Shown here piece by piece: positions 35,575 through 50,393 of a DNA stretch of 64,000 nucleotides. Made by a program: the position numbers and the translations under genes. The notes beneath the pieces were generated by a model, which was given only the letters and a program-made list of their open reading frames with translations, searched no databases and was not told the DNA's origin. Position 1 is the first letter of the stretch; every line of letters starts with the position of its first letter. Origin of the DNA: Hyunsoonleella pacifica (GTDB taxonomy: Bacteria; Bacteroidota; Bacteroidia; Flavobacteriales; Flavobacteriaceae); assembly GCF_004310335.1 (NCBI RefSeq), contig NZ_SIRS01000007.1:173719-237718 (forward strand), read 5' to 3'.

Positions 35575-36870
35575 TCAACGTTTTAAAACATTTCTAAACT
35601 GATAAAACAAGCGTTCTATTAACCGTAAATCCTCGGTAATGATTTCTGCTGAACCAGACATTTCCTGTTTAAAATCAATGTCCTTATTATAAGTAGTGAT
35701 TAGCTTTTTAGGTAATTCCACATCAATAATATAAAAACCTTCTTTATTTGGGATTAGAGATATATTTTTCACAATGCCTTTTAGTACACCAAACTCGGTA
35801 TCTGGGTAATTTTCTAGTTTGATATTAACCGTTTGCCCAACCTTTATCTTTCCTGAGTTTTGCGTTGGTGCTTTCAATTTTGCTATAAATAACGAACTCT
35901 GAGCAGGAATAATAGTAAACACCAAATCGCTTTGGTTTACAGTTTGATTTACATTCCAATAATTTAAAAAGGATACCTTACCATTTATATCAGACCTTAA
36001 CACATATTGGTATTCCCAATCTTTAATGGCTTTCTTTAATTGGTTATAGGATTGTATGACTTGTTTAAGTAATGTCATTTCTTCCTTAACCCGATTGATT
36101 TCTGTACCTCTAGAATTTTTGTGCGCATTACTTAGGTTTTCTTTAATCTGAGAAATAGAGGACTCAAAACTTTGATAGTTTCGTTTTGCTTGGGCATACT
36201 CCAATTGCTTGTTCTCATAAGTCTGCTCTGAAATAATACCTTTTTCAAAAAGTGTTTCGTTGCGTTTTAAATCTTTGGCTTTAAACTCCATTTCAATGGC
36301 ATTTATCTCTTTTTGGGATTGCAGGTTTTTTAATCTCCTATTGAGTTCAGCAATGGAGTACTTATTAGCCAGAGCATCATTAGAAAAGGGCTTAAGTTCT
36401 CTATTTAGTTTATATTGTATATAACTGTTTTCAAAAAGTGCATATGGAGCATCTATATCACCTAAAAATAATACAGGCATGTTATCTAAAGGAAACTGAA
36501 ATGCTTTGGCATCAACAATTAAGGTGTCAATAATGCTCTTTAGGAGAAATACATCCTTGTAATCGGCAGTATTCTCAATAATAGCAAGGGGTTGATTGAC
36601 GTTTACGGTAGCATTATCTTTTACAAGAACAGCAGTAAGCTTTCCTGTAACTCTTGCATATTCTTTTTGCGGTGGTATTTGCGTTGTAACTAAGGCTTCA
36701 GAGGGAATAATGTCGGGATATTTAACCAACCAAAAGATAAGTAACAATAAAAGAATCAAAAGAAAACAGATTGTACTGCCCCAACGTATCACCCAATTAG
36801 GTACTTTAGTAAGGATGTCCTGTACTTCCTCACTGCGCAATTCAATGTTTTTTAAGCTATTATCCGCCAT
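35575..36870 (-). CDS. HlyD-family periplasmic adaptor of the peptide exporter
   Basis: A 431-aa membrane fusion protein. A cytoplasmic N-terminus of ~30 residues and one membrane segment (ICFLLILLLLLIFWLV, ~35-50) are followed by a lipoyl half (ARVTGKLTAVLVKDNATVNVNQPL), a long coiled-coil hairpin (~160-290) and the second lipoyl/beta-barrel part (VSFLNYW, GKIKVGQTVNIKLENYPDTEFG). It bridges an inner-membrane ABC exporter to an outer-membrane TolC-type channel. The gene directly abuts the C39 exporter gene upstream, so the two form a unit. Confidence 0.9.
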   Translation of the reverse strand: MADNSLKNIELRSEEVQDILTKVPNWVIRWGSTICFLLILLLLLIFWLVKYPDIIPSEALVTTQIPPQKEYARVTGKLTAVLVKDNATVNVNQPLAIIENTADYKDVFLLKSIIDTLIVDAKAFQFPLDNMPVLFLGDIDAPYALFENSYIQYKLNRELKPFSNDALANKYSIAELNRRLKNLQSQKEINAIEMEFKAKDLKRNETLFEKGIISEQTYENKQLEYAQAKRNYQSFESSISQIKENLSNAHKNSRGTEINRVKEEMTLLKQVIQSYNQLKKAIKDWEYQYVLRSDINGKVSFLNYWNVNQTVNQSDLVFTIIPAQSSLFIAKLKAPTQNSGKIKVGQTVNIKLENYPDTEFGVLKGIVKNISLIPNKEGFYIIDVELPKKLITTYNKDIDFKQEMSGSAEIITEDLRLIERLFYQFRNVLKR

Positions 36871-39057
36871 TTAATTTCCTAGTTCCAATTGATTCTTTAC
36901 CAAATTATAATACTCTCCTTTTTTCGCAACTAATGCCTTATGATGACCTACCTCGGCAATTTGTCCGTTGTCTATCACGACAATCTGGTCAGCATCTTTT
37001 ACAGTACTTAAACGATGTGCAATAACAACCACGGTTTTATTCTTAAAAAATGTATTTAGCTTTTCCATGATTACCCTTTCGTTATTGGTATCCAGTGCAC
37101 TGGTAGCTTCATCAAAAAATAAAAATTTAGGATTTTTGTATACTGCTCTTGCAATTAAAAGACGTTGCTTTTGTCCAGTACTTAAACCTATACCTTCCAT
37201 ACCTATTTTAGTATTGTAGCTTAAAGGCAGTGATTCAATATAGTCTTTAATATTGGCTATATCTACAGCGTGCGCCAGTTTAGTTTTATCTATAACATCC
37301 TCACCAACGGCAATGTTATTCGCTATAGTGTCGCTAAAAATATAACCCTCTTGCATTACCACACCACATTTCTCTCGCCAATGCTTATGGGAGATGTGTT
37401 TTAGATCGTTCTGACCAATTATAATTTTTCCCTGATTAGGTTCATAAAATTTCAATAATAATTTCATTAAGGTTGTCTTGCCACTTCCACTCACTCCAAC
37501 AATAGCCGTAATCTTATTAGCAGGGATTTCTAGATCAATTTTATTTAGCACTACTTGGTCAGAGCCAGAATACCTAAATGACACATCCATTATATTGAAG
37601 TTGATACCTTTCGGGATTTCATTTATTCTATTGTCAAATTCTTTTTCCTCATCTTCTTTTTGATGTATTTCCGATAAACGCTCTAGAGAAATTTTAGCAT
37701 CTTGAATTTCCTTAATAAAATCTATGAGTTGGACTATAGGAGAATTTAATTGCCCCACTATGTAGCTTATTGCTAACATCATACCCAGGGTAATTTCTCC
37801 ATCAATTACCAATTTAGCAGATAGTATGGTAATTAAAATATTTTTTAATTCGTTAAAAAAGTTAGATCCAACACTTTGGTATTGTTCCAATTTTAGGCCA
37901 TCTATAGAAACCTTAAATAATCTTGCTTGGATATTCTCCCACCCCCAACGTTTTTGTTTTTCAGCATTGTGGAGTTTAATTTCTTGCATGCCACTGATAA
38001 GTTCAATAACCCTGCTTTGTTCTTGGCTTACCTCAGAAAATCGTTTATAATCTAAATTGGCTCGCTTCTTTAGAAAAATACTAATCCATAAGAAATAGAG
38101 AACACTCCCTATAATAAAAACACCAAAAATCTGAAGATTATAATACAGTAGTACTAAACTGAACAAAATCAGATTAAATGTTGAAAAAAGGACACTCAAA
38201 GATGACGTAGTTAATACCTGTTCAATGCGTCTGTGGTCGTTTATACGCTGAAGAATATCCCCAGTCATTCTTGAATCAAAGAATGCTATTGGTAGATTCA
38301 TTAGTTTTATAAAAAAATCAGAAACCAACGAGATATTTATTCGAGTACTCAAATGCAGTAAAATCCAACTTCTAATTACTTCTATTGAAGTTCTTCCGAT
38401 AAAAAGAGCTAATTGTGCAAAAAGAATTAGATAAACAAAGTGAATATCCTGATTCTTTATACCTACATCAACAATACTTTGTGTTAAAAAAGGAAATACC
38501 AGTTGTAAAGCACTAGCTGCTATTAGACCAATTACCAACTGCCAAATAAACTTTTTATACTTCAGAATATATTTAGAAAGAAATAAAAAGCCAAGTTTAT
38601 TATCTTTATCAGTATAACAAATTTCATAAAATGCAGGTGTAGTTTCCAAAAGTAAAACTACTCCTTCTTCTGTTTTATCATTAGCATTATTTCCAATCCA
38701 ACATTTCAAGAACTCCTCTTTTGAGTATTTTAACAAACCATGTGCAGGATCTGAGACATAAAAAACACCTTTTACTATTTTATACAGGACCACAAAATGT
38801 TTTTTATTCCAATGTAAGATACAAGGTAAAGGCGCTACAAGTAATTTTTCTAGTGAAATTTTAACCCCAATAGAACGGAAGCCTAATTGCTCTGAAGCCT
38901 CTGCCAAACCGTGTAAACTAGAACCTAATCGCGTAGTCTCTGTAAGATTACGTAGTTGTTGAAGAGGTATCGTTTTATTATAAAATTTGGCAATAATTTT
39001 TAAGCATGTAGGACCACAGTCTTTTAAATCATATTGTTTGTAATGAGGAAATTTCAT
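36871..39057 (-). CDS. Bacteriocin-type ABC exporter with C39 peptidase domain (PCAT 1)
   Basis: A 728-aa exporter that both cuts and transports double-glycine peptides. The C39 peptidase domain (~1-135) has the catalytic Cys14 (DLKDCGPTCL), oxyanion Gln8, a His in KKHFVVLYK and an Asp in VSDPAHG. Six membrane segments follow (~165-440). The ATPase domain holds Walker A GVSGSGKTTL, signature LSTGQKQRLLIARA, Walker B FLFFDEATSALD and the H-loop AHRLS. All catalytic residues are present. It shares the operon with a second, different PCAT (39174..41336). Confidence 0.95.
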   Translation of the reverse strand: MKFPHYKQYDLKDCGPTCLKIIAKFYNKTIPLQQLRNLTETTRLGSSLHGLAEASEQLGFRSIGVKISLEKLLVAPLPCILHWNKKHFVVLYKIVKGVFYVSDPAHGLLKYSKEEFLKCWIGNNANDKTEEGVVLLLETTPAFYEICYTDKDNKLGFLFLSKYILKYKKFIWQLVIGLIAASALQLVFPFLTQSIVDVGIKNQDIHFVYLILFAQLALFIGRTSIEVIRSWILLHLSTRINISLVSDFFIKLMNLPIAFFDSRMTGDILQRINDHRRIEQVLTTSSLSVLFSTFNLILFSLVLLYYNLQIFGVFIIGSVLYFLWISIFLKKRANLDYKRFSEVSQEQSRVIELISGMQEIKLHNAEKQKRWGWENIQARLFKVSIDGLKLEQYQSVGSNFFNELKNILITILSAKLVIDGEITLGMMLAISYIVGQLNSPIVQLIDFIKEIQDAKISLERLSEIHQKEDEEKEFDNRINEIPKGINFNIMDVSFRYSGSDQVVLNKIDLEIPANKITAIVGVSGSGKTTLMKLLLKFYEPNQGKIIIGQNDLKHISHKHWREKCGVVMQEGYIFSDTIANNIAVGEDVIDKTKLAHAVDIANIKDYIESLPLSYNTKIGMEGIGLSTGQKQRLLIARAVYKNPKFLFFDEATSALDTNNERVIMEKLNTFFKNKTVVVIAHRLSTVKDADQIVVIDNGQIAEVGHHKALVAKKGEYYNLVKNQLELGN

Positions 39058-39173: not shown

Positions 39174-41336
39174 TTAAAGCAATGCAACTACAGGTAATTG
39201 TTGTTGCCATAAATTAAAATAATGTCCTTTTGTTGAATATAATTCATCATGAGACCCCGCCTCCAAAACACTCCCTTTATCTAAGACTACTATCTTATCA
39301 GCATTAATCACGGTACTCAATCTATGGGCAATTATTATGATGGTCTTATTGTTTTTTCTCAAATTATTAATAGTATTTTGAATGAAATTTTCAGATTTAC
39401 TATCTAATGAAGATGTAGCTTCATCCAATACTAATATTTCAGGTTCTTTATAAATGGCTCTGGCAATAGCAATACGTTGTTTTTGTCCTCCAGATAAGGA
39501 TACTCCATTTTCTCCCAAGTAAGTACCAAAGCTATTTGGCAAAGCTTCAATAAACTCTAAGATATTTATGGCTTTACAAATAGCAATAATACGTTCCATA
39601 TTTGGTGAAAATTCTCCAACAGCTATGTTTTCTACTACATTTCCTGCAAACAAATCTATTTTTTGAGGCACAACACTTACTAACTGTCTTAGACTTTCGT
39701 TTTCGATATATTTTAAATCCAAATCGCCTATAGTAATTCGCCCATTTTGTATAGGGTAAATGTTTTGAAGTAAAGACATTAAAGTAGATTTTCCGGAGCC
39801 ACTTTCTCCAACAATGGCTGTTATTTTGCCTTTTGGTACAGTTAAGTTGAAATCTTTAAATACTTCTACCCGCGTACCGTATCTAAACTTAACATTTTTG
39901 AAGCTTATGTTACCTATAGCATCTTTTGTAAGTTTTATTTTGTTATCAGACTCTTCTCGTTCTAAATCCATGATTTCAAATAATCTATCCGCTGCAATCA
40001 ACGCATTTTGTATTTGTTTATTAGCTCCAATTAAACTAGCTACAGGTCCAGTAAAATAACCAACAATAGCATAGAATGACATTAACTCTCCAGCTGTTAT
40101 TTCTCGTTCAATAACGAAGTAAGAACCGCTCCATAATAATATTATGGTAAATAATTGAGCTACTGAGCTTGAACTCGTCCCAGAAAAAACCGAATTTAAA
40201 GCAGACTTGTACCCAATTTGTAATAGGTTAATAAATTTTGTTTCTGTTTTAATATTTGCAAAATCTTCTAATCCGAATCGTTTTATAGTACCAACAGCAT
40301 TAAGAGACTCCACCAATTGGCTCTCTAAATCTGCACTTCTTTCCATAATAGTGCGTTCTGTTTTCTTGTTAAGCTTGTTAATAATAAAATAAATGAGCGC
40401 ATATACTGGGATAACCAATAGCATGATTAATGCTAACTTCCAGTAGTAGAAAAACATTAACCCAAAGGAGAAGCACAAAATGAGTACATTTACCGTAAGA
40501 CTTAGAGATACACCGTTAATAAAAGTGCGTATTTTAACAGCATCATTAATGCGAGAAATAATTTCTCCAACACGCATAGTATCGAAAAACTGTTGTGGTA
40601 ATTTAAATAGGTGTTTATAATAGCCTAAGATTAAACGTGCATCAATTTGCTGACCTGTTTTAATGAGGAAAACATCTTTAAAAGCGCCTATTACTATTTG
40701 TAATGCTAGTAAGGCAATCATTATAATTCCTAATAAATTAAGAAGTCTAGTATTGCCGCCTACCAAAACAAAGTCCGTTAATTTCTGTATGTAAATAGAT
40801 GTAGAAAACCCTAGTAAAGTGTAAACCACTGCACCTATGAAAGCCTGAATTAAAACAAATTTATGAGGTCTTAATAAAAACCAAAACCGTTTATAAATAG
40901 ATACTTTTTCGTTGCCAGTACTAAACGTATCCTTTGGCATTAATAATACTAAAACTCCTGTCCATTCTTTAGTAAATTCCTCATGCGTTTTTTTATGAAA
41001 TTTCCCTGTACCAGGATCCATTACGGTAACATGAGTTTTAGTAACCTCATAAATTACCACATAGTGATGTAAGCGCTCTTTCACTATAATGTGTGCTATA
41101 GCTGGCTTGGGTATTTTAAAAAGGCTTTCTAGCTCGCCACGAACCCCTTTGGATTCAAAGCCTAATTTATCTGCAGCCTCAATAAGACCTAATACATTAG
41201 TACCTTTTTTATCTGTACCTGCGTATTGCCGTATGCGAGCAATAGGGATTTGTAATTTATAATGTGCTGAGATGGATGCCAAACAAGCAGCACCACAGTC
41301 TGTAATATCGTGTTGTTTTATTTTGATGTTTGCCAT
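39174..41336 (-). CDS. Bacteriocin-type ABC exporter with C39 peptidase domain (PCAT 2)
   Basis: A 720-aa protease-exporter. The C39 domain (~1-130) has Cys14 in DITDCGAACL, Gln8, a His in RLHHYVVIYEV and an Asp in VMDPGTG. A six-segment membrane domain follows. The ATPase has Walker A GESGSGKSTL, signature LSGGQKQRIAIARA, Walker B ILVLDEATSSLD and AHRLS. It is clearly distinct in sequence from PCAT 1, so this is not a recent duplicate; the two may form a heterodimer or handle different precursors. Confidence 0.95.
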   Translation of the reverse strand: MANIKIKQHDITDCGAACLASISAHYKLQIPIARIRQYAGTDKKGTNVLGLIEAADKLGFESKGVRGELESLFKIPKPAIAHIIVKERLHHYVVIYEVTKTHVTVMDPGTGKFHKKTHEEFTKEWTGVLVLLMPKDTFSTGNEKVSIYKRFWFLLRPHKFVLIQAFIGAVVYTLLGFSTSIYIQKLTDFVLVGGNTRLLNLLGIIMIALLALQIVIGAFKDVFLIKTGQQIDARLILGYYKHLFKLPQQFFDTMRVGEIISRINDAVKIRTFINGVSLSLTVNVLILCFSFGLMFFYYWKLALIMLLVIPVYALIYFIINKLNKKTERTIMERSADLESQLVESLNAVGTIKRFGLEDFANIKTETKFINLLQIGYKSALNSVFSGTSSSSVAQLFTIILLWSGSYFVIEREITAGELMSFYAIVGYFTGPVASLIGANKQIQNALIAADRLFEIMDLEREESDNKIKLTKDAIGNISFKNVKFRYGTRVEVFKDFNLTVPKGKITAIVGESGSGKSTLMSLLQNIYPIQNGRITIGDLDLKYIENESLRQLVSVVPQKIDLFAGNVVENIAVGEFSPNMERIIAICKAINILEFIEALPNSFGTYLGENGVSLSGGQKQRIAIARAIYKEPEILVLDEATSSLDSKSENFIQNTINNLRKNNKTIIIIAHRLSTVINADKIVVLDKGSVLEAGSHDELYSTKGHYFNLWQQQLPVVALL

Positions 41337-41456: not shown

Positions 41457-42140
41457 TTATTGTATTAGCAGCCCCCAACCGAATATGAATGCATTATGGA
41501 TGATATGAAAGCTTATAGCAAATGATATATTATGTCTAAGCCTTATAAAACTTAGATACAGCCCAAAGAAAAACTGTAAAGAGATTAAAATAGGTATGAA
41601 CAAAAAATGAAAAATTTCGTAATAAGAAAAATTAAACGCATGTAAAAAACTAAACATCAATAAGTTAAAATATAAATAGATGTTAAAGTTTTTATTTAAA
41701 AGTGTACTTATTTTTTGACCTACAGTAAAATAACAGATTACGGCAAACACAATCATTAAAAGAACTCTCTCATAAAATGTGGCCTCAAAAATGTTAAGCA
41801 TATGCATATAGATTACTAGTTGTATAGACAGGCTAATAGAAATAGTTAATTTGTTGATTTTTATACTATATCTAAAAGCTAACTCTTCCATAATTGGTGC
41901 AATAAAAACTGTTAGTAAAAAAGCATTAACAACGTTAGTCTCAAGGTCTTTTTTACTCTTAAAGATCATAGCAAACTCATCAAATATTACCGAAAGTATA
42001 CCTACTACTAAAGCCCATAAAAATGTTACAGTCAGATCAAAAATTAAAAATCCCTTTAAAACTGTTATTAATTTCACTTTCTCTCTTTTTATTCTTTTCG
42101 GATTTTTAAGAAAAAGAGAGAGTTCGGATACTAATTTCAT
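41457..42140 (-). CDS. CPBP-family (Abi/CAAX-type) intramembrane protease, candidate immunity protein
   Basis: A 227-aa protein with about seven predicted membrane segments. The family motifs are present: PIMEELAFRY (EExxxR), a FLHAF His motif and HIIHNAF near the C-terminus. Members of this family process prenylated proteins in eukaryotes, and in bacteria often sit in bacteriocin operons as self-immunity or maturation factors. The position between two precursor peptides and two PCATs supports such a role, by inference. Confidence 0.82.
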   Translation of the reverse strand: MKLVSELSLFLKNPKRIKREKVKLITVLKGFLIFDLTVTFLWALVVGILSVIFDEFAMIFKSKKDLETNVVNAFLLTVFIAPIMEELAFRYSIKINKLTISISLSIQLVIYMHMLNIFEATFYERVLLMIVFAVICYFTVGQKISTLLNKNFNIYLYFNLLMFSFLHAFNFSYYEIFHFLFIPILISLQFFFGLYLSFIRLRHNISFAISFHIIHNAFIFGWGLLIQ

Positions 42141-42171: not shown

Positions 42172-42192
42172 ACGCCCGTAAATTACGGGCGT
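42172..42192 (-). terminator. Hairpin terminator after the two precursor genes
   Basis: ACGCCCGTAA pairs with TTACGGGCGT around a single base. On the minus strand it is followed by ATTTT. It would lower expression of the CPBP and exporter genes relative to the peptides. Confidence 0.7.
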
Positions 42193-42218: not shown

Positions 42219-42401
42219 CTATTGTTGCGCTTCATGTGTAAGTATGTGAACGGCTGTAACTACTGTGCCGGCTGCTACCCCAACAGCATAGCCAACAGCA
42301 TAGCCCACGTCTTCTGCAAAATCAGTAAACCAACCTCCTCCTTCAATTTCAGTTATTTCTTGTATGTTCATAATTTGAACATCTAATGTTTCTATATTCA
42401 T
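42219..42401 (-). CDS. Double-glycine precursor peptide 2 (bacteriocin-like)
   Basis: A 60-aa peptide with a 22-residue leader ending in EITEIEGG and a 38-residue core starting GWFTDFAEDV. The core contains three spaced glycines (GYAVGYAVGVAAG), which give tandem GxxxG motifs as used in helix pairing by two-peptide bacteriocins, and it has no Cys. The leader acids and hydrophobics match what C39 peptidases recognise. It starts 24 bp after the stop of precursor 1, in one transcript. Activity (antimicrobial or signal) is unknown. Confidence 0.88.
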   Translation of the reverse strand: MNIETLDVQIMNIQEITEIEGGGWFTDFAEDVGYAVGYAVGVAAGTVVTAVHILTHEAQQ

Positions 42402-42425
42402 CTTTTCAATTTTTAAAATTATTAA

Positions 42426-42620
42426 TTAATGATATGTATTTGCATGTGCATCAGTCGCACGATTTGCTCCATCACTAACTCCCTCTATAAAAGCGACAAG
42501 TACTTTGGTGCTTGTTGAAATATACCAAGCAGCTGCATCAGTCAACCAGCTACCACCCTCAGTAGTAGTTAATTCCATTGTATTCATTTCCTTGACATCA
42601 AAACTATGTAAATTTTTCAT
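42426..42620 (-). CDS. Double-glycine precursor peptide 1 (bacteriocin-like)
   Basis: A 64-aa peptide with a 23-residue leader ending in ELTTTEGG and a 41-residue core starting SWLTDAAAWY. The core has a hydrophobic helix (TKVLVAFIEGVSDG, including one GxxxG) and a polar, His-rich tail. There is no Cys, so no disulfide or lanthionine is possible. Leader and core openings (EGG then x-W) resemble precursor 2, so the two are paralogous. It is the first gene after the HTH regulator, preceded by two small tandem hairpins. Confidence 0.88.
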   Translation of the reverse strand: MKNLHSFDVKEMNTMELTTTEGGSWLTDAAAWYISTSTKVLVAFIEGVSDGANRATDAHANTYH

Positions 42621-42712: not shown

Positions 42713-43039
42713 TTATGCGGGTTGACTGCATAAACCTTGCAGTAGTGTATTTCTCTTAAAAAAATAAGTGCCTCCAAATAGTTGTAATACCTCGTTATTA
42801 CTTAGTGCTGTTACAGATATACTTATTTGCAACTCATAATCATCGTTATAATAATACGTTTTTATTCTACGGTTATAGGATATAGGGGCACCAAAATCCT
42901 TTAACTCTTCAATTAAATTATACAACAGCCGTTCGCTTATATTCATAAAACGTGCAAGTTCTTTAGGGGTACCTGTATTGGCTTGCTCTATACGCTGGTG
43001 GAGTTGTTGTAAACGCTCTAAGTGTTTTATACTTTTCAT
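42713..43039 (-). CDS. Small HTH transcriptional regulator of the peptide locus
   Basis: A 108-aa protein. An N-terminal winged helix of HTH_11/DeoR type (HLERLQQLHQRIEQANTGTP, then ELARFMNISERLLYNLIEELKDFGAPI) is followed by a beta hairpin (RIKTYYYNDDYELQ). The end (NNEVLQLFGGTYFF) looks like the stub of a WYL-type regulator without its effector domain. I recall such proteins beside GG peptides in Flavobacteria. It is 14 bp after the HlyD gene and directly upstream of the precursors, so local control is likely. Confidence 0.75.
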   Translation of the reverse strand: MKSIKHLERLQQLHQRIEQANTGTPKELARFMNISERLLYNLIEELKDFGAPISYNRRIKTYYYNDDYELQISISVTALSNNEVLQLFGGTYFFKRNTLLQGLCSQPA

Positions 43040-43053
43040 GTTTTGTATTCAGA

Positions 43054-44223
43054 TTAATTGTTTATAGCTACTAATTCGTTTTGGCTTGGGTTTACCCAAT
43101 CATCTACTTTATCGTATAATAAATCGAACAACGTGCGTTCGGTTAATTTAAATTGAGCATTAAGGGTCATGCCTTTTTTTAACTGCCCTTTAAATCCATT
43201 TTTTAAACCTAATTTTTTTTCGTTCAGTTGGCATAATACTTTAAATACTGGCGCATTATTCTTTATTTCAATATCTTCAGCAATATCTATAACGGTTCCT
43301 GTAGCTAAACCCCATTGGTTGTAGTTATAAGCATCTACTTGAAAAGTAACTGTATTATTAAGTTTTATTAAACCAATATCTTTTGGTGCAATAAAACACT
43401 CTACCAGTAATGAAGTGTTAGGGGATATACTTGCTAGCACTTCTCCAGCACTAACCATACTTCCTTTCTCTAGGGGTTTTAAGGTTACTATATTACCAGA
43501 AATAGGAGCTTTAATCACATATTCCAATCTGTTGTCTAGAAGTTGTTTTGTGTTGCTTTCCAACTCAATTACCTTGTTTTTATATTCGGTTAATTGAGAT
43601 TCCCACACACTCATTTGTTGCTGTTTTAATTGGTAAATGCTGTTGTTTATCAAGTCAAAATCTAGGGTAACATTTTCAAATTCTACTTTAGCTATTACAC
43701 CTTTTTTAAAAAGTAATTTATTTCTCTCATAGTCCTTATTTAATTTTTTATGGCGGGTGTATAGCTCCTGTAATTTTTGGGTATACAACAAATATTCTTT
43801 TTTATACTTTGGAGAAGATATCTTTCTGTTTTGAATTTTAGAATCACTAACTAAATATGCTAAATCATCTATTAATATATTGATGTTATCTGTTTGTAGT
43901 TTTAATAAGTTTAGTTTTTCGTTAATAAGAGTATTATCTAAACTAATTAAGGTATCTCCTTTATTGACAAACTGATTACTTTTTAAGTTTACAAAGACGG
44001 CCTTACCTGAATTTATAGAAGTAACGGTTAATCGTTCTTGATCTGGTTTTATTAAACCACGATGCGTACTATAAATATCAACTCTAACAAAGGGAAGCGC
44101 TACTAATACAGCTATTATTGCACATAAAATTGTAGTGTAAATAACTTTACTCTTTTTACTGTGCTTAAATTGATGGGAATGAATACTGGAATTTATAATT
44201 TCTTTTGGAAAAATTTGATGCAT
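43054..44223 (-). CDS. HlyD-family periplasmic adaptor, second copy
   Basis: A 389-aa membrane fusion protein with one N-terminal membrane segment (VIYTTILCAIIAVLVALPFV), a first lipoyl half (HRGLIKPDQERLTVTSINSG), a coiled coil (~90-220) and the second half (YVIKAPISGNIVTLKPLEKGSMV). It starts the minus-strand operon. It differs in sequence from the HlyD at 35575, matching the presence of two exporters. Confidence 0.9.
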   Translation of the reverse strand: MHQIFPKEIINSSIHSHQFKHSKKSKVIYTTILCAIIAVLVALPFVRVDIYSTHRGLIKPDQERLTVTSINSGKAVFVNLKSNQFVNKGDTLISLDNTLINEKLNLLKLQTDNINILIDDLAYLVSDSKIQNRKISSPKYKKEYLLYTQKLQELYTRHKKLNKDYERNKLLFKKGVIAKVEFENVTLDFDLINNSIYQLKQQQMSVWESQLTEYKNKVIELESNTKQLLDNRLEYVIKAPISGNIVTLKPLEKGSMVSAGEVLASISPNTSLLVECFIAPKDIGLIKLNNTVTFQVDAYNYNQWGLATGTVIDIAEDIEIKNNAPVFKVLCQLNEKKLGLKNGFKGQLKKGMTLNAQFKLTERTLFDLLYDKVDDWVNPSQNELVAINN

Positions 44224-44419: not shown

Positions 44420-46099
44420 ATGAACTTATCCTATAGTTGGTTTTTTGTGTTTTTTATAGTCTCAATTTACAACTCTGCTAATTGTCAAGATTATGAACAG
44501 GATTCATTAAAAAACAAACCTTATAAATACCTAGAAAAGAAATTTTTTAAGCATCAAGATGATTCTAAGGTAGCCTCAATTTATGTTGATGCATGGGTAA
44601 ATAAAGCGAAAGTAGCAAAGGATACTTTTAACCTAGCTAATGCATATTTGTATAAGTCTTATAACTTAGAATATAACGAAGCCATAAAATATTCAGATAG
44701 TATTGTTTTATTGACTAGAGATTATTTAAATGAAAAGTTCCCTGCTCTAGGATATATGATAAGAGGATATCATCATTATTCAATAGGTAAAGATAAAAAG
44801 GCGTTAGATGATTATTTAGTAGCTTATACCTATGCCTTAAAGCGAAATAACGTAAATCAACAAATTGAAATACAACAGTTCATTGGAGGAATGCATTATA
44901 ATTCGGGGAATTATAATGAAGCTATAAAAATTTTCAAAAATCAGTATTCTTATTTTGAAGCTAGACCTAAGTTTAAAATAAAAAATGGAGATGATTATTT
45001 GTTAGTTTTAGATGACTTGTCTAAGTCTTATTTAAGAGGTAAGAAAACCGATTCTGCTCTAATATATACTAATAAAGGAATTAAACTTAGTCTAAATGAT
45101 AATGAAATGTACAGTCGCTTTTTATTAAATAGTGCTATTTCTTTTTATTATAAACAGGAAAATTCCAAAGCTTTGGATAGCTTAAATAAAGTAGAATCAA
45201 TGTTAGACAATACTAGTTTGGCAATTTGTATGTATTATAAAGCTAAAGTTTTTCAAAATAATGACGAACAAAAAACAATTCAATATTTTAAAAAAGTCGA
45301 TTCAATATATAGAAAAAATAATGTTTCTTTTCTTGAATTAAGAGATGTATATAAATCAATGTTTGATTATTATTCTAAAAACGGAACTGAAAAAGAGCAA
45401 TTAAATTCGGTTAACAAATTGATAGAAATAGATAGTATTCTGGATATCGATTTCAAAGACATTAATGATGGGATTATTAAAAATTATGAAGTTCCTAAGC
45501 TTAAAAACGAAAAAGTTAAATTAGAAAAAGAATTAATTAAGTATAAATTAAATAACAAAGGAATAGTATATACAGCGATCATAATAATATTAGTTTTTAC
45601 TTTTTTATTATTAAATTTTTACAGAAAACAGAAACGTTACAAACAGAGATTTAACAAAATTATTAACGAGCAAGAACATAACAATAACACCAATAAAAGT
45701 AAAGCAATTACATTAAATAACAAAAGTAAACATGTAGGAATTTCTGAAGAAGTAATATCAAATATTTTGAGACAATTAGAACTTTTTGAATCTAAAGGTA
45801 ATTTTACAAAAAATGATATTACCTTAAACAAATTGTCAAAAGAATTTAGGACTAACACATCATATTTATCTAAGGTTATAAACTGTTACAAGAAGGAGTC
45901 TTTTTCAAGTTACTTAAGCAATTTGAGAATAGAGTATGCAATAAAAGAATTGAAAAACAATAAAGCTTTTAGAAATTATACAGTAACAGCTATGGCAAAA
46001 GAAATAGGATTCAACAACCCTGAATCATTTTCCAAAGCATTTTATAAAAAAACAGGCATTTACCCTTCCTACTTTATTAAACAACTAAATCAAACATAA
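44420..46099 (+). CDS. TPR - transmembrane - AraC-type HTH regulator
   Basis: A 559-aa one-component regulator. The frame is open from a TTG at 44399, but that overlaps a promoter box, and the ATG at 44420 gives a good N-terminal signal (SWFFVFFIVSIYNSANCQ). A periplasmic region of TPR-like helices (~30-370) is followed by one membrane helix (~381-400; TAIIIILVFTFLLLNFY) and a cytoplasmic AraC-type double HTH at the end (LSKEFRTNTSYLSKVIN, then MAKEIGFNNPESFSKAFYKKTGI). Such proteins sense something outside the inner membrane and act directly on DNA. Divergence from the exporter operon and proximity to a precursor peptide make a role in peptide sensing plausible. Confidence 0.9.
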   Translation: MNLSYSWFFVFFIVSIYNSANCQDYEQDSLKNKPYKYLEKKFFKHQDDSKVASIYVDAWVNKAKVAKDTFNLANAYLYKSYNLEYNEAIKYSDSIVLLTRDYLNEKFPALGYMIRGYHHYSIGKDKKALDDYLVAYTYALKRNNVNQQIEIQQFIGGMHYNSGNYNEAIKIFKNQYSYFEARPKFKIKNGDDYLLVLDDLSKSYLRGKKTDSALIYTNKGIKLSLNDNEMYSRFLLNSAISFYYKQENSKALDSLNKVESMLDNTSLAICMYYKAKVFQNNDEQKTIQYFKKVDSIYRKNNVSFLELRDVYKSMFDYYSKNGTEKEQLNSVNKLIEIDSILDIDFKDINDGIIKNYEVPKLKNEKVKLEKELIKYKLNNKGIVYTAIIIILVFTFLLLNFYRKQKRYKQRFNKIINEQEHNNNTNKSKAITLNNKSKHVGISEEVISNILRQLELFESKGNFTKNDITLNKLSKEFRTNTSYLSKVINCYKKESFSSYLSNLRIEYAIKELKNNKAFRNYTVTAMAKEIGFNNPESFSKAFYKKTGIYPSYFIKQLNQT

Positions 46100-46213: not shown

Positions 46214-46357
46214 ATGAAAAAAGACAAAAAACAAAACGTCAAAAATTTAGAAACTTTTTCTAAATTCAAACTAAACAATACTAACTTAGTATATGGAGGA
46301 GTTGGGAAAGACGACGACATTGATAGGAAGAAATTAAAAATACCAGGAAATAAATGA
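46214..46357 (+). CDS. 47-aa GG-leader precursor peptide with short charged core
   Basis: An ORF starting at ATG 46214. The leader of 29 residues contains NLETFSKFKLNNTNLVYGG, close to the Bacteroidota natural-product leader pattern in which an L..F..FKL..... stretch precedes GG. The predicted core is VGKDDDIDRKKLKIPGNK, short, highly charged and without Cys, Ser or Thr, so lanthionine formation is not possible. Such a core fits a signal peptide better than a pore-former. It lies between the TPR-AraC regulator and two protease genes and is followed by a strong hairpin. Confidence 0.78.
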   Translation: MKKDKKQNVKNLETFSKFKLNNTNLVYGGVGKDDDIDRKKLKIPGNK

Positions 46358-46439: not shown

Positions 46440-48632
46440 ATGAAAAAACTGTTGATTACATTAAGTCTACTTTCCATAGTAGGCTGTATTAAAAAAAACA
46501 ACTTTTATAAGAATTACCCTTCTCCAAAAATCAGGAAAGAGCCTACTTTTGAAAAATATTTTAGTACTACTGTAAATGACAGTTATAGGAATTTAGAAGA
46601 CATTAAGGACTCCTTGGTTGATAATTGGTACAGAAGTCAGAACATTTTTGCTAAAACAATTTTAGATAATATTGAAGGAAGAGATGATTTGGCTAGAGAA
46701 TTATATAAAGTAAGCAATAGAAAATCTTTTAAAACAAAAAGGATTAATGTCACTTCAAACAGTAAATATTTTTTCCTGAAAAAGGAAGCAGACGAAAGTT
46801 ACTACAAACTTTATTACAAGGAAAATTCACTATCTGATGCAGTTATTTTATTAGATCCAAAAAAACTAAACATTAATAACAGGAATGATTATGTCATTAA
46901 TTACATTAAACCTAGTTGGAATGGTAAGTATGTAGCGGTGTCACTTACTTATTCAGGAAGAGACTTGTCTGATTTAGTAGTGTTAGATGTTACTAATAAA
47001 AAATTACTACCACAAATTTTGATTAATGCTTGGCCCACTAGTTTTTTAGGAATTAATTGGTTGCCTGACAACTCTGGTTTCACTTACTTAAGATTTCAAG
47101 ATACTGATATAACAAAACCAAAATTTAAACAAAATTCCCAATCCGTTTTACACTTATTGAAAGATAAAAATGGAAAAGTTGATTATATTTTTGGAAATAA
47201 AACGCATTCAAAATTAAATATTTCGGAAACTATTTATCCTACTACTAAAATTCATTCAGAGAAAGATAAATATATTATAGGTTACCTTTCAGAGGTAGAT
47301 AATTACTGGAAAGCATATTATGCTAATATTGTAGACATAAAATCTGGAAACTATAATTGGAAACCTTTGTATGGTAAAAAAGATAAAGTTTTAACCCAAA
47401 AAGGATATTTTATTGATGATAAATTCATTTTTTTATCAGCTAAAGATGCAGACAACAAAAAAATAATGTCGGTAAATACTTCTGAACTAAATTTTGACGA
47501 GGCAATCACTTTAGTAAATGAAAAACCAGAAGAAGTTATTGATGATTTTGAAATAACTAAAGATGCCATTTTTTATTCAACTCTAAAATATGGTGTGGAT
47601 GCCAATTTATACAGATTAGTTGATGGAAAAGAAGAAAAATTAAAAACTCCCAAAAAAGCAGGTAGAATAAGTTTAAGTAATAAGTCTCCTTATTCTAGCG
47701 ATTTGTGGGTAGCTATCGAGGGATGGACAAGTCCATACATTGAATATTTTTATAATATTAAATCTAATACATTTTCAAAACATAATCTATCTTCAAATAT
47801 AGAATATCCTGAATTCAATAATATAATTGCAGAAGAGGTGCTTATAAAAGCCCATGATGGAGAAGAAATTCCTCTATCGATTATTAGAAATATAGATTTT
47901 AATAAAAACCATAATGCTCCTGTTTTCTTGTATAGTTATGGAGCTTATGGAGATATCGAAAGTCCATATTTTTCAAGTTTAATGTTAAGTTTTGTCAAAA
48001 GGGGAGGTATTTATGCTATTGCTCATGTTAGAGGAGGAGGAGAAAAAGGTGATAAATGGCATAAAGGAGGATACAAGTCTACTAAGTCTAATTCATGGAA
48101 AGACTTGATTTCCTGTTCTGAATACCTTGTAGAAGAAAAATTAACAACCAAGGATAAAATTACACTATATGGAGCAAGTGCTGGAGGTATAACTGTTGGA
48201 AGAGCCATGATCGAACGTCCAGACCTTTTCAAAGTTGTTATTTCTCAATATGGTTATTTAAATCCTTTTAGAGGTGAGGTTATAGGCTCTGCAGGCACTA
48301 ATTCTGAAGAGTTTGGATCTGCAAAAGATTCTTTGGAATGTTTGTCTTTAATTAAAATGGATCCATATTTAAATCTTAAAAAAAATGTGGATTATCCCGC
48401 AGTCTATTTAACTACAGGCATGAACGATCCTCAAGTTCAGCCTTGGATGTCAGGAAAATTTGTTGCTAAATTACAAAGTAATAATAAACTCAAAAATCCT
48501 GTTTTATTGTTAGCAGATTATGAAACTGGACATGGTGATAATCCAGATGAGCTCAAGGTATATAAAGATTGGGCAAACATCTTTTCTTTTATTTTTTGGC
48601 AAACAGGGCACCCTGACTATCAATTAAAATAA
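46440..48632 (+). CDS. Prolyl oligopeptidase family (S9) lipoprotein
   Basis: A 730-aa serine peptidase. The lipoprotein signal ends at Cys16 (SIVGC). An N-terminal seven-bladed propeller region (~60-430) is followed by an alpha/beta hydrolase domain with catalytic Ser580 (YGASAGG), Asp663 (TGMNDPQV) and His698 (ETGHGDN). S9A enzymes cleave after proline in short peptides; the propeller excludes folded proteins. Its placement after a precursor whose core has a single Pro (KIPGNK) allows a role in trimming or degrading that peptide, which is inference. It should be anchored to the outer or inner membrane facing the periplasm or surface. Confidence 0.92.
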   Translation: MKKLLITLSLLSIVGCIKKNNFYKNYPSPKIRKEPTFEKYFSTTVNDSYRNLEDIKDSLVDNWYRSQNIFAKTILDNIEGRDDLARELYKVSNRKSFKTKRINVTSNSKYFFLKKEADESYYKLYYKENSLSDAVILLDPKKLNINNRNDYVINYIKPSWNGKYVAVSLTYSGRDLSDLVVLDVTNKKLLPQILINAWPTSFLGINWLPDNSGFTYLRFQDTDITKPKFKQNSQSVLHLLKDKNGKVDYIFGNKTHSKLNISETIYPTTKIHSEKDKYIIGYLSEVDNYWKAYYANIVDIKSGNYNWKPLYGKKDKVLTQKGYFIDDKFIFLSAKDADNKKIMSVNTSELNFDEAITLVNEKPEEVIDDFEITKDAIFYSTLKYGVDANLYRLVDGKEEKLKTPKKAGRISLSNKSPYSSDLWVAIEGWTSPYIEYFYNIKSNTFSKHNLSSNIEYPEFNNIIAEEVLIKAHDGEEIPLSIIRNIDFNKNHNAPVFLYSYGAYGDIESPYFSSLMLSFVKRGGIYAIAHVRGGGEKGDKWHKGGYKSTKSNSWKDLISCSEYLVEEKLTTKDKITLYGASAGGITVGRAMIERPDLFKVVISQYGYLNPFRGEVIGSAGTNSEEFGSAKDSLECLSLIKMDPYLNLKKNVDYPAVYLTTGMNDPQVQPWMSGKFVAKLQSNNKLKNPVLLLADYETGHGDNPDELKVYKDWANIFSFIFWQTGHPDYQLK

Positions 48633-48728: not shown

Positions 48729-50393
48729 ATGATCACCCGCTTTCTTATGAAATTTATTAGAATTTATTTTCTTTCAGTTATTACAATACTCCTTTTTCAG
48801 TGTACCAAGAAAAAGGAGTATCCTCAGATAAAAAAAATAGAAAACCCTTTGGTTTTTAGTGATACGTTATTTGACAAAAAAACTTGGTTTAAGAAAGATA
48901 TTATTGAAGACTCAATTCCTGGTATAAGTTTAGACAAAGCAAAAAAACTATTAAAAAACAAAAAGCACCAAAAGGTAATTGTTGCTATTATTGATGGTAC
49001 AGTCGATATCGAACACAAGGATTTGAAGGATCATATTTGGAAAAATTTTGATGAAATTGCCAACAATGGATTGGATGATGACCACAATGGCTATGTTGAT
49101 GACATTAATGGTTGGGATTTTCTAGGAAGCAATGATAGTATCGATCATAAGTATTTACACTACAGTTATACTAGATATGTAAAAAAGTATGACAGCCTTT
49201 ATAAGGGAAAAACCCTTAGTGATCTAGATCCAAAAGATTCGCTAGGTTTCATAACATATCAACATGCAAAATACAGATTAAACCAGAAATTAAAATCTGT
49301 ACCAGAAGAAAAACAATATGCAGAGAATGTTAAGAAATGGAAAGGTAAAGCCAAATCAAAAATTATTATGTCTCTCGGATATGATGATGATTTTAATTTT
49401 ACATTAAAAAAATTAGATAGTATTAAATCAAGTATAGTTAGGGATAGTATTTTGCTAGAAAATATACAGATTCTGTCTGGATTTATAGAACATGGCTATA
49501 CAGATGAGTATATTGAGCATTTAAATGTAAAGGCAAGAATACTAATAAATAAACAACTAAATATTGTTTATGATGAGCGAGCGTTTCTGGGCGATAATCC
49601 CAGTAATATCAATGATATTGGTTATGGGTCAAACCGAGTAAATAGTAATCTGGGTATATATTCTCATGGTACAAAGGTTGCTGGCCTTGTTGTAAAAGAA
49701 AGCACTGAGATTAAAATTATGCCTTTAGCCATATCTGGTCATGGATCGAATCATGATAAGGATATAGCTTTAGCGATTCGTTACGCGGTAGACCAAGGAG
49801 CAAAAGTTATCAATATGAGTTTTGGTAAGGAATTTTCAGTATATAAACATATGGTCGACGAAGCCTTTTTATATGCACAACAAAATAATGTATTGTTAGT
49901 AAGTTCTACAGGTAATGATTATTATGATGTAGACAATCCTAAAAATATTAAATACCCCACAGACTTGGACGCAAGTAGAAGGATTGAATTTGTAAATAAT
50001 TTTATATCAGTAGGTGGCTCTACTTGTTATGCAAACGAAGATTTGAATTTCGAAGATAGTAATTATGGTAAGAAGAATGTAGATATTTTTGCACCTGCAG
50101 ATAAAATTTATACTATGTATCCTAACGATGAATATAGATTCGATAGTGGCACTTCACTTGCCTCTGCTCTAACATCAAAAGTGGCTGCTTTACTATTTTC
50201 TTATTACCCCAATCTAACTGCCCCTCAAGTCAAACAAATCATCATGGATAGTGGCGTGGAATATACGTTTTCTGTAAAGATGCCTACCGTAGAAAACGAG
50301 AACAGAACTACACCCTTCAATCAACTCTCAAAATCTGGTAAAATTGTAAATGCTTACAATGCTTTAATTATGGCGGACAGTATTTCTAAATAA
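48729..50393 (+). CDS. Subtilisin-like (S8) serine protease lipoprotein
   Basis: A 554-aa S8 protease. Catalytic residues are Asp89 (IIDGTVDIEH), His313 (SHGTKVAGL) and Ser476 (DSGTSLAS), with Asn in SSTGNDY. About 220 residues lie between Asp and His, a long insert typical of Bacteroidota subtilases with NGLDDDHNGYVDDINGWDF. The signal peptide is lipoprotein-like with Cys at 25 (LLFQC); starting at the second Met (48747) would give a more usual signal length. It lies 97 bp after the S9 gene. Peptide processing or surface proteolysis is likely. Confidence 0.92.
   Translation: MITRFLMKFIRIYFLSVITILLFQCTKKKEYPQIKKIENPLVFSDTLFDKKTWFKKDIIEDSIPGISLDKAKKLLKNKKHQKVIVAIIDGTVDIEHKDLKDHIWKNFDEIANNGLDDDHNGYVDDINGWDFLGSNDSIDHKYLHYSYTRYVKKYDSLYKGKTLSDLDPKDSLGFITYQHAKYRLNQKLKSVPEEKQYAENVKKWKGKAKSKIIMSLGYDDDFNFTLKKLDSIKSSIVRDSILLENIQILSGFIEHGYTDEYIEHLNVKARILINKQLNIVYDERAFLGDNPSNINDIGYGSNRVNSNLGIYSHGTKVAGLVVKESTEIKIMPLAISGHGSNHDKDIALAIRYAVDQGAKVINMSFGKEFSVYKHMVDEAFLYAQQNNVLLVSSTGNDYYDVDNPKNIKYPTDLDASRRIEFVNNFISVGGSTCYANEDLNFEDSNYGKKNVDIFAPADKIYTMYPNDEYRFDSGTSLASALTSKVAALLFSYYPNLTAPQVKQIIMDSGVEYTFSVKMPTVENENRTTPFNQLSKSGKIVNAYNALIMADSISK

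What the first reader, a model, noticed from the sequence alone, without database searches (positions are those of the whole stretch)
42219..42620. Paired GG precursors look like a two-peptide bacteriocin with Abi-type immunity in a Gram-negative
Both cores (41 and 38 aa) begin x-W after EGG, lack Cys, and contain GxxxG: one in precursor 1 (GVSDG) and three tandem in precursor 2 (GYAVGYAVGVAAG). In Gram-positive class IIb bacteriocins, GxxxG motifs drive pairing of the two peptides, and CPBP/Abi proteins give immunity. Here a CPBP gene (41457-42140) follows directly. The parallel is by motif and gene order; antimicrobial activity is not shown.
Basis: partly seen in the sequence, partly recalled or inferred. 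Interest (0 to 1): 0.75.

Follow-up and report, generated by a model that had tools for sequence, protein, structure and literature searches.

The report
Plantaricin-like bacteriocin pair in Flavobacteriaceae
A Gram-negative bacterium of the family Flavobacteriaceae carries two small exported peptides, a dedicated exporter and a probable self-protection protein laid out like the two-peptide antibiotics of lactic acid bacteria, and dozens of its relatives carry the same cassette with different peptide pairs; killing activity has not been tested.

Summary
Two adjacent minus-strand genes encode double-glycine (GG) leader peptides (cores of 41 and 38 aa, no Cys, one and three GxxxG), followed by a CPBP/Abi-type membrane protein and a C39 peptidase-ABC exporter. 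Comparative work turns the analogy into a family. I collected 60 non-redundant HTH-marked loci, nearly all from Flavobacteriaceae; 54 hold 127 GG precursors, 40 hold two or more. In one core per sequence cluster, G residues four apart are about twofold enriched (47 vs 24.5, z 4.9) and no other spacing is. First and second peptides are co-conserved as pairs (partial Mantel r 0.90). Second-position cores resemble plantaricins K and E, first-position cores plantaricin J, not the reverse; the window's second core matches PlnK (shuffle p 1.5e-4). At least 15 of 60 loci carry a CPBP gene near the peptides, as in plnJKL and blp loci. Differences: cores are mostly anionic, the host is Gram-negative, core-only family-model hits are insignificant, and some cassettes hold single peptides or homologous arrays. 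Best reading: a new Gram-negative branch of class IIb-like two-peptide bacteriocins with CPBP immunity. Killing, synergy and immunity are inferred. Extra: the cassette's HTH regulator ends in a GG-leader-like motif.

The parts
42426..42620 (-). pep1: GG precursor, leader 23 aa, core 41 aa, one GxxxG (GVSDG)
   Evidence: related first-position peptides aligned in A3 (hand-picked)
42219..42401 (-). pep2: GG precursor, leader 22 aa, core 38 aa, three overlapping GxxxG; plantaricin K-like GYAVGYAVG
   Evidence: (the only invariant columns of its family are the two Gly of a GxxxG)
41457..42140 (-). CPBP/Abi (Rce1-like glutamic intramembrane protease family) membrane protein, probable immunity protein; motifs EELAFR, FSFLH, HIIHN
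42172..42192 (-). terminator-like hairpin between pep2 and the CPBP gene (9 pairs, 6 G-C, then ATTTTAATAC); could lower CPBP expression relative to the peptides
42713..43039 (-). 108-aa winged HTH (HTH_11) regulator, marker gene of the cassette
42770..42805 (-). C-terminal GG-leader-like motif of the HTH protein (LSNNEVLQLFGG, residues 79-90), followed by an 18-aa tail
43054..44223 (-). MFP1, HlyD-type membrane fusion protein
   Evidence: conserved in front of the HTH gene in many cassettes
39174..41336 (-). ABC1, C39 peptidase-ABC exporter; TIGR01193 540 bits, above cut-off 523.85
   Evidence: 75-90% identical in most cassettes
36871..39057 (-). ABC2, second C39 peptidase-ABC exporter; membership of the cassette uncertain
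   Evidence: close homologues with MFP2 lie elsewhere on the opposite strand in L151 and L158
35575..36870 (-). MFP2, HlyD-type partner of ABC2; membership of the cassette uncertain
44420..46099 (+). divergent TPR/AraC-type regulator next to MFP1; next to the cassette also in Flavivirga jejuensis (L098)

Best explanation
This is a two-peptide (class IIb-like) bacteriocin operon of a Flavobacteriaceae bacterium. Pep1 and pep2 are made as inactive GG precursors; the C39 domain of ABC1 cuts after GG and exports the cores with the HlyD protein MFP1 and a TolC-type outer membrane protein encoded elsewhere. Outside, the two helical cores pair through GxxxG faces and permeabilise the inner membrane of related bacteria, probably after engaging a membrane protein receptor. 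The CPBP protein in the producer's inner membrane gives self-immunity. The HTH protein, and perhaps the divergent AraC/TPR protein, control expression. Shown here by sequence: the anatomy, the conserved cassette, specific enrichment of GxxxG spacing, co-conservation of pairs, plantaricin K/J-type resemblance, the CPBP family. Inferred: cleavage, export, pairing, killing, immunity.
For: Conserved MFP1-HTH-[GG peptides + immunity]-ABC1 cassette: 60 non-redundant loci, 54 with GG genes, 40 with two or more. GxxxG: 47 vs 24.5+/-4.4 in shuffles, one core per sequence cluster; spacings 1-3 and 5-8 not enriched. Pairs in tandem (window gap 24 nt) and co-conserved: Mantel r 0.88, partial r 0.90 given HTH similarity, no permutation as high. 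The only invariant columns in the pep2 family are G15/G19; in the hand-picked pep1 family G24 is invariant, D27/G28 at 90% or more. Position-specific resemblance to PDB-verified plantaricins: pep1-PlnJ mean z 1.13, pep2-PlnK 2.28, pep2-PlnE 1.94, reversed combinations about 0.3; PlnK is the top PDB hit of the pep2 profile, though at E 0.14. Family models: TIGR03949 (class IIb) touches 30/59 precursors, best 2.3e-7; Bacteriocin_IIc 20/59. CPBP in at least 15/60 loci. PMC8538875: Abi-family PlnI and PlnL protect against plantaricins EF and JK, and nearly all class IIb peptides have GxxxG; PMC4860687: CAAX proteases are counted as immunity genes of the blp locus.
Against: Net charge of the cores is negative on average (-1.2; window -2 and -4), whereas PlnE/F/J/K are +3 to +5. 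Core-only searches give no significant class II family hit; family-model scores are largely leader-driven. Pep1 does not resemble PlnJ beyond chance (p 0.43), and single-sequence search of pep2 hits other GxxxG membrane helices such as amyloid-beta at similarly weak scores. 14 cassettes show one peptide, and Sinomicrobium cassettes hold 3-7 peptides, mostly homologous, so the cassette does not always deliver pairs. No activity data exist.
Confidence: 0.72

Rival explanations
1. The peptides are secreted signals (ComC/BlpC-like pheromones) of a quorum-sensing circuit rather than toxins.
For: Leaders weakly match ComC and BlpC models; a small HTH regulator marks the cassettes.
Against: Cores are mostly 30-45 aa and rich in GxxxG, not short tails; two or more different peptides per cassette; membrane immunity-type proteins next to them; pronounced turnover, as expected for arms-race toxins (L098: HTH 81% and ABC1 88% identical but unrelated peptides).
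Confidence: 0.1
2. The peptides act on the producer itself (programmed lysis or membrane remodelling), as reported for the Neisseria gonorrhoeae nap island, which also pairs GG peptides with a small putative regulator and a LagC-like immunity protein.
For: PMC11798529: class II-like GG peptides of a Gram-negative that do not kill competitors but drive autolysis; similar gene set.
Against: Nap peptides are cationic; the Flavobacteriaceae cassettes differ strongly in peptide content between related genomes and are accessory, which suits competition better than a fixed lysis programme.
Confidence: 0.08
3. Two independent single-peptide bacteriocins that merely sit side by side, each active alone.
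For: Some cassettes hold one peptide or arrays of homologous peptides.
Against: First and second peptides form different sequence classes and are inherited as matched pairs.
Confidence: 0.1

Closest known systems
Plantaricin JK with PlnL (Lactiplantibacillus plantarum), also plantaricin EF with PlnI
   Same: Two adjacent GG precursors; the second core shares GYAxGYAxG with PlnK (SW 47, shuffle p 1.5e-4); peptide genes together with an Abi/CPBP immunity gene; C39-ABC exporter.
   Different: Gram-negative host; HlyD-type fusion proteins and presumably TolC; anionic cores; no inducer or two-component genes recognised, instead an HTH protein; pep1 of the window not significantly PlnJ-like.
blp bacteriocin locus of Streptococcus pneumoniae
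   Same: Hypervariable set of GG type IIb peptides with CAAX proteases and small membrane proteins as immunity genes (PMC4860687).
   Different: Different phylum, regulator and exporter type; the cassette here has one HTH gene at a fixed place beside the peptides.
Bacteroidetocins (class IIa-like, Bacteroidetes)
   Same: GG-leader peptides exported by a C39-ABC protein in Bacteroidetes (PMC6671954).
   Different: Bacteroidetocins have four Cys, an associated thiol oxidoreductase, 15-16 aa leaders, no immunity gene and single peptides; here no Cys in the pair, no oxidoreductase gene seen between 34 and 52 kb, 22-23 aa leaders, a CPBP gene and a pair.
Neisseria gonorrhoeae nap island
   Same: Gram-negative GG peptides with a small putative DNA-binding protein, C39 peptidase and LagC-like immunity gene (PMC11798529).
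   Different: Cationic peptides with autolytic role; FapF-related export channel; no CPBP mentioned in that paper's text (0 occurrences).

Membership tests
Class IIb two-peptide bacteriocins | Two different unmodified peptides, both needed in about equal amounts for full activity | not testable with these tools
   Needs synthesis and assay; co-conservation of pairs is indirect support
Class IIb two-peptide bacteriocins | Adjacent genes, GG leaders, C39-ABC exporter nearby | tested here: met
   conserved in most of 60 loci
Class IIb two-peptide bacteriocins | GxxxG or GxxxG-like motif in each peptide | tested here: met
   Present in both cores; spacing 4 specifically enriched in the family, z 4.9; pep1 alone only p 0.048
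Class IIb two-peptide bacteriocins | Cationic peptides (as the four plantaricin peptides compared) | tested here: not met
   Window cores -2 and -4; family mean -1.2; plantaricins +3 to +5. A usual property of lactic acid bacterial members, not a strict definition
Class IIb two-peptide bacteriocins | Sequence homology to described members above curated cut-offs | tested here: not met
   Window peptides below every Pfam/NCBIfam cut-off; core-only hits insignificant; PlnK resemblance by shuffle test only
CPBP/Abi (PF02517) immunity proteins | Motifs EExxxR, FxxxH, HxxxN in a multi-spanning membrane protein | tested here: met
   9/11 homologues match PF02517; SpdC Z 8.2
CPBP/Abi (PF02517) immunity proteins | Protects against the cognate bacteriocin | not testable with these tools
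   Only gene neighbourhood
Bacteroidetocins | Cys-containing single peptide with thiol oxidoreductase gene | tested here: not met
   No Cys in either core; no such gene recognised among the main ORFs of 34-52 kb

The most novel reading that the evidence does not exclude
The cassette's HTH regulator is itself a substrate or ligand of the C39 peptidase: its C-terminus carries a canonical double-glycine leader motif (LSNNEVxxhFGG, fitting the LSxxELxxIxGG pattern recalled for C39 leaders) and a variable tail, so that engagement by the exporter would set the regulator's activity or release its tail as a signal, directly coupling export capacity to bacteriocin expression.
Probability: 0.17. Interest if true: 0.8.

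Novelty: new variant of a known kind. Interest (0 to 1): 0.64.

Why it matters
The papers found here describe two-peptide bacteriocins from Gram-positive bacteria (e.g. the abstract of PMC6957408); I found none, in the held library, describing them with CPBP immunity in Bacteroidota. If the peptides kill, the family Flavobacteriaceae has a large, hypervariable arsenal of paired peptides that must cross or bypass an outer membrane, giving dozens of ready pair/immunity sets for testing how partner choice and CPBP specificity evolve. The GG-like motif on the regulator suggests a testable link between export and regulation.

Tried and rejected
Protein search of each precursor in 99 relatives found only a few weak true relatives and a large group of unrelated long proteins matching pep1 residues 20-60; I switched to the HTH gene as a marker, which worked. 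Single-sequence PDB search of pep2 returned amyloid-beta and of pep1 nothing; the pep1 profile found nothing. Foldseek with the CPBP model gave no significant match; only the VIA-align second look singled out SpdC. The idea that GG retention in cassette-linked HTH proteins is proved by Fisher's test (53/57 vs 11/29, p 8e-8) was tempered: on a tree only about 4-7 independent contrasts exist and the sign test is not significant. I considered a modified-peptide (RiPP) reading and put it aside because no modifying enzyme is recognisable among the main ORFs of 34-52 kb.

Full report
Observation. The window's minus strand carries, in order: a HlyD-type fusion protein (MFP1, 44223-43054), a 108-aa HTH protein (43039-42713), pep1 (42620-42426), pep2 (42401-42219), a CPBP protein (42140-41457), a C39 peptidase-ABC exporter (ABC1, 41336-39174), a second C39-ABC exporter (39057-36871) and a second HlyD protein (36870-35575). 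The leaders of pep1 and pep2 resemble each other. A terminator-like hairpin lies between pep2 and the CPBP gene.

A conserved cassette. The precursors themselves are too short and too variable for broad searching. The neighbouring HTH gene is a good marker: 51 of 397 genomes of the family have it, and a scan of named genomes gave 68 loci, all but one in Flavobacteriaceae or Flavobacteriia records, including Flavivirga, Tenacibaculum, Polaribacter, Sinomicrobium, Zeaxanthinibacter and Lutimonas. Around it, many loci show MFP1 and ABC1 with variable GG peptides and small membrane proteins. In a set of 60 non-redundant loci with HTH plus MFP1 or ABC1 homologues, 54 had at least one GG precursor, 40 had two or more, and two was the commonest number. 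The detection filter is strict and some contigs are cut, so these are lower bounds. The locus is accessory: none of the same-genus genomes in the sample has the HTH gene, and in the closest one (G002; flanking proteins 93-95% identical) the interval between the same two flanking genes holds other genes.

GxxxG is specific. In one core per sequence cluster (61 clusters), G-xxx-G occurs 47 times against 24.5+/-4.4 in composition-preserving shuffles; G pairs at spacings 1-3 and 5-8 are not enriched. In the family of second peptides that holds window pep2, the two Gly of a GxxxG are the only invariant columns; in the hand-picked first-peptide set G24 is invariant and G28 nearly so. In the window alone the signal is modest for pep1 (p 0.048) and good for pep2 (p 0.003).

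The peptides travel as pairs. Adjacent peptides are often separated by only 3-40 bases. Similarity of first peptides between loci predicts similarity of second peptides (Mantel r 0.88 over 39 pairs; partial r 0.90 over 32 loci after removing HTH similarity; no permutation came close). At least four pair families are conserved between loci (L094/139/142/154/161; L107/151/159; L072/125; L068/120). The result is driven by these families and does not prove physical pairing.

Resemblance to plantaricins. I verified the sequences of PlnJ, PlnK, PlnE and PlnF against their PDB entries. First-position cores score above their own shuffles against PlnJ (mean z 1.13+/-0.29) and second-position cores against PlnK (2.28+/-0.36) and PlnE (1.94+/-0.40); the exchanged comparisons are near 0.3. 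The window's pep2 aligns with PlnK over 17 residues without gaps (VGYAVGYAVGVAAGTVV / IGYAIGYAFGAVERAVL; p 1.5e-4). The window's pep1 does not match PlnJ (p 0.43), but GxYDGxxG peptides in related cassettes do (L142, L154). PlnK is the top hit of the pep2 profile among 177,635 PDB sequences, but at E 0.14. I therefore claim resemblance, not proven homology. Family models for class II/IIb bacteriocins touch many precursors (TIGR03949 30/59, best 2.3e-7; Bacteriocin_IIc 20/59), mainly through the leader.

Immunity protein. The 227-aa protein is sub-threshold in Pfam, but NCBIfam's nearest family is a glutamic-type intramembrane endopeptidase, the EExxxR motif is invariant in 11 homologues (the homologues were picked by that motif), 9 of the 11 match PF02517, and the predicted structure (pLDDT 83) has SpdC, which I know as a CPBP-family protein, as a clear best match (Z 8.2, next 4.2). 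Genes with the EExxxR motif in this size range lie close to GG peptides in at least 15 of 60 loci. Published work links Abi-family PlnI and PlnL to immunity against plantaricins EF and JK (PMC8538875) and CAAX proteases to the blp locus (PMC4860687).

What does not fit. The cores are anionic on average (window -2 and -4), the four plantaricins strongly cationic. Some cassettes carry one peptide; Sinomicrobium carries arrays of 3-7 mostly homologous, very hydrophobic peptides; L126 carries two near-identical Asp-rich peptides. So the exporter cassette is a general carrier of GG peptides, within which two-peptide sets are the commonest content.

A second, unexpected point. The cassette's HTH protein ends in LSNNEVLQLFGG-(18 aa), which fits the GG-leader pattern LSxxELxxIxGG (recalled) position by position; GG or AG is kept in 53 of 57 cassette-linked HTH proteins but 11 of 29 without the cassette nearby. 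The tail is modelled at very low confidence, without secondary structure. On a tree the loss outside cassettes amounts to few independent events and is not significant, and the segment may simply be a beta-hairpin inherited from HTH_11 regulators. It is listed as the most novel reading, at low probability.

Verdict. Supported: a Gram-negative, plantaricin-like two-peptide bacteriocin operon with CPBP immunity, one member of a widespread hypervariable family in Flavobacteriaceae. I found no description of such a family in the held literature, which is limited to open-access papers. BACIIalpha reported class II candidates from Bacteroides (PMC7494827) and NCBI has a leader model for Chryseobacterium 'bacteriocin-like' peptides, so GG peptides as such in the phylum are known. 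Activity, synergy and immunity remain to be shown.

Noticed in passing
window 42770-42805 (-), HTH residues 79-90: GG-leader-like motif LSNNEVLQLFGG near the C-terminus of the HTH regulator, kept as GG/AG in 53/57 cassette-linked homologues and 11/29 others; tails vary but often hold LQGLCS, ARKLQ or ASFLQ-like strings.
   Followed up: partly
window 46214-46357 (+): 47-aa peptide MKKDKKQNVKNLETFSKFKLNNTNLVYGGVGKDDDIDRKKLKIPGNK, leader-like up to YGG, followed by an S9-type peptidase (46440-48632) and a subtilase-like protein (48729-50393); no family hit for the peptide. The S9 and AraC/TPR genes also flank the cassette of Flavivirga jejuensis (L098).
   Followed up: partly
window 36871-39057 and 35575-36870 (-): A second C39-ABC exporter with its own HlyD protein directly behind ABC1; close homologues occur as a separate unit on the opposite strand in L151 and L158, so it may serve another substrate.
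   Followed up: partly
L112, L113, L117, L118, L123 (Sinomicrobium): Arrays of three to seven mostly homologous, very hydrophobic GG peptides (LLGGLDGVxxLVTGVxxTVxGVVG...) with many G-xxx-G spacings in the same cassette.
   Followed up: no
L151, L159, L108 (7916-8455): CPBP-like proteins that keep EExxxR but lack the HxxxN motif, possibly immunity proteins without protease activity.
   Followed up: no
L130 11987-12210, L091 7202-7345: A peptide pair or single peptide of the ILPxxxxxDxxLLGxMxGYIYES family next to another C39-ABC-like gene and unrelated conserved proteins, beside an HTH gene without the usual MFP1/ABC1.
   Followed up: no
L102 (NYSS01000119.1): A contig labelled Planctomycetota carries a typical Flavobacteriaceae cassette (ABC1 79% identical); probably mis-binned.
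   Followed up: no
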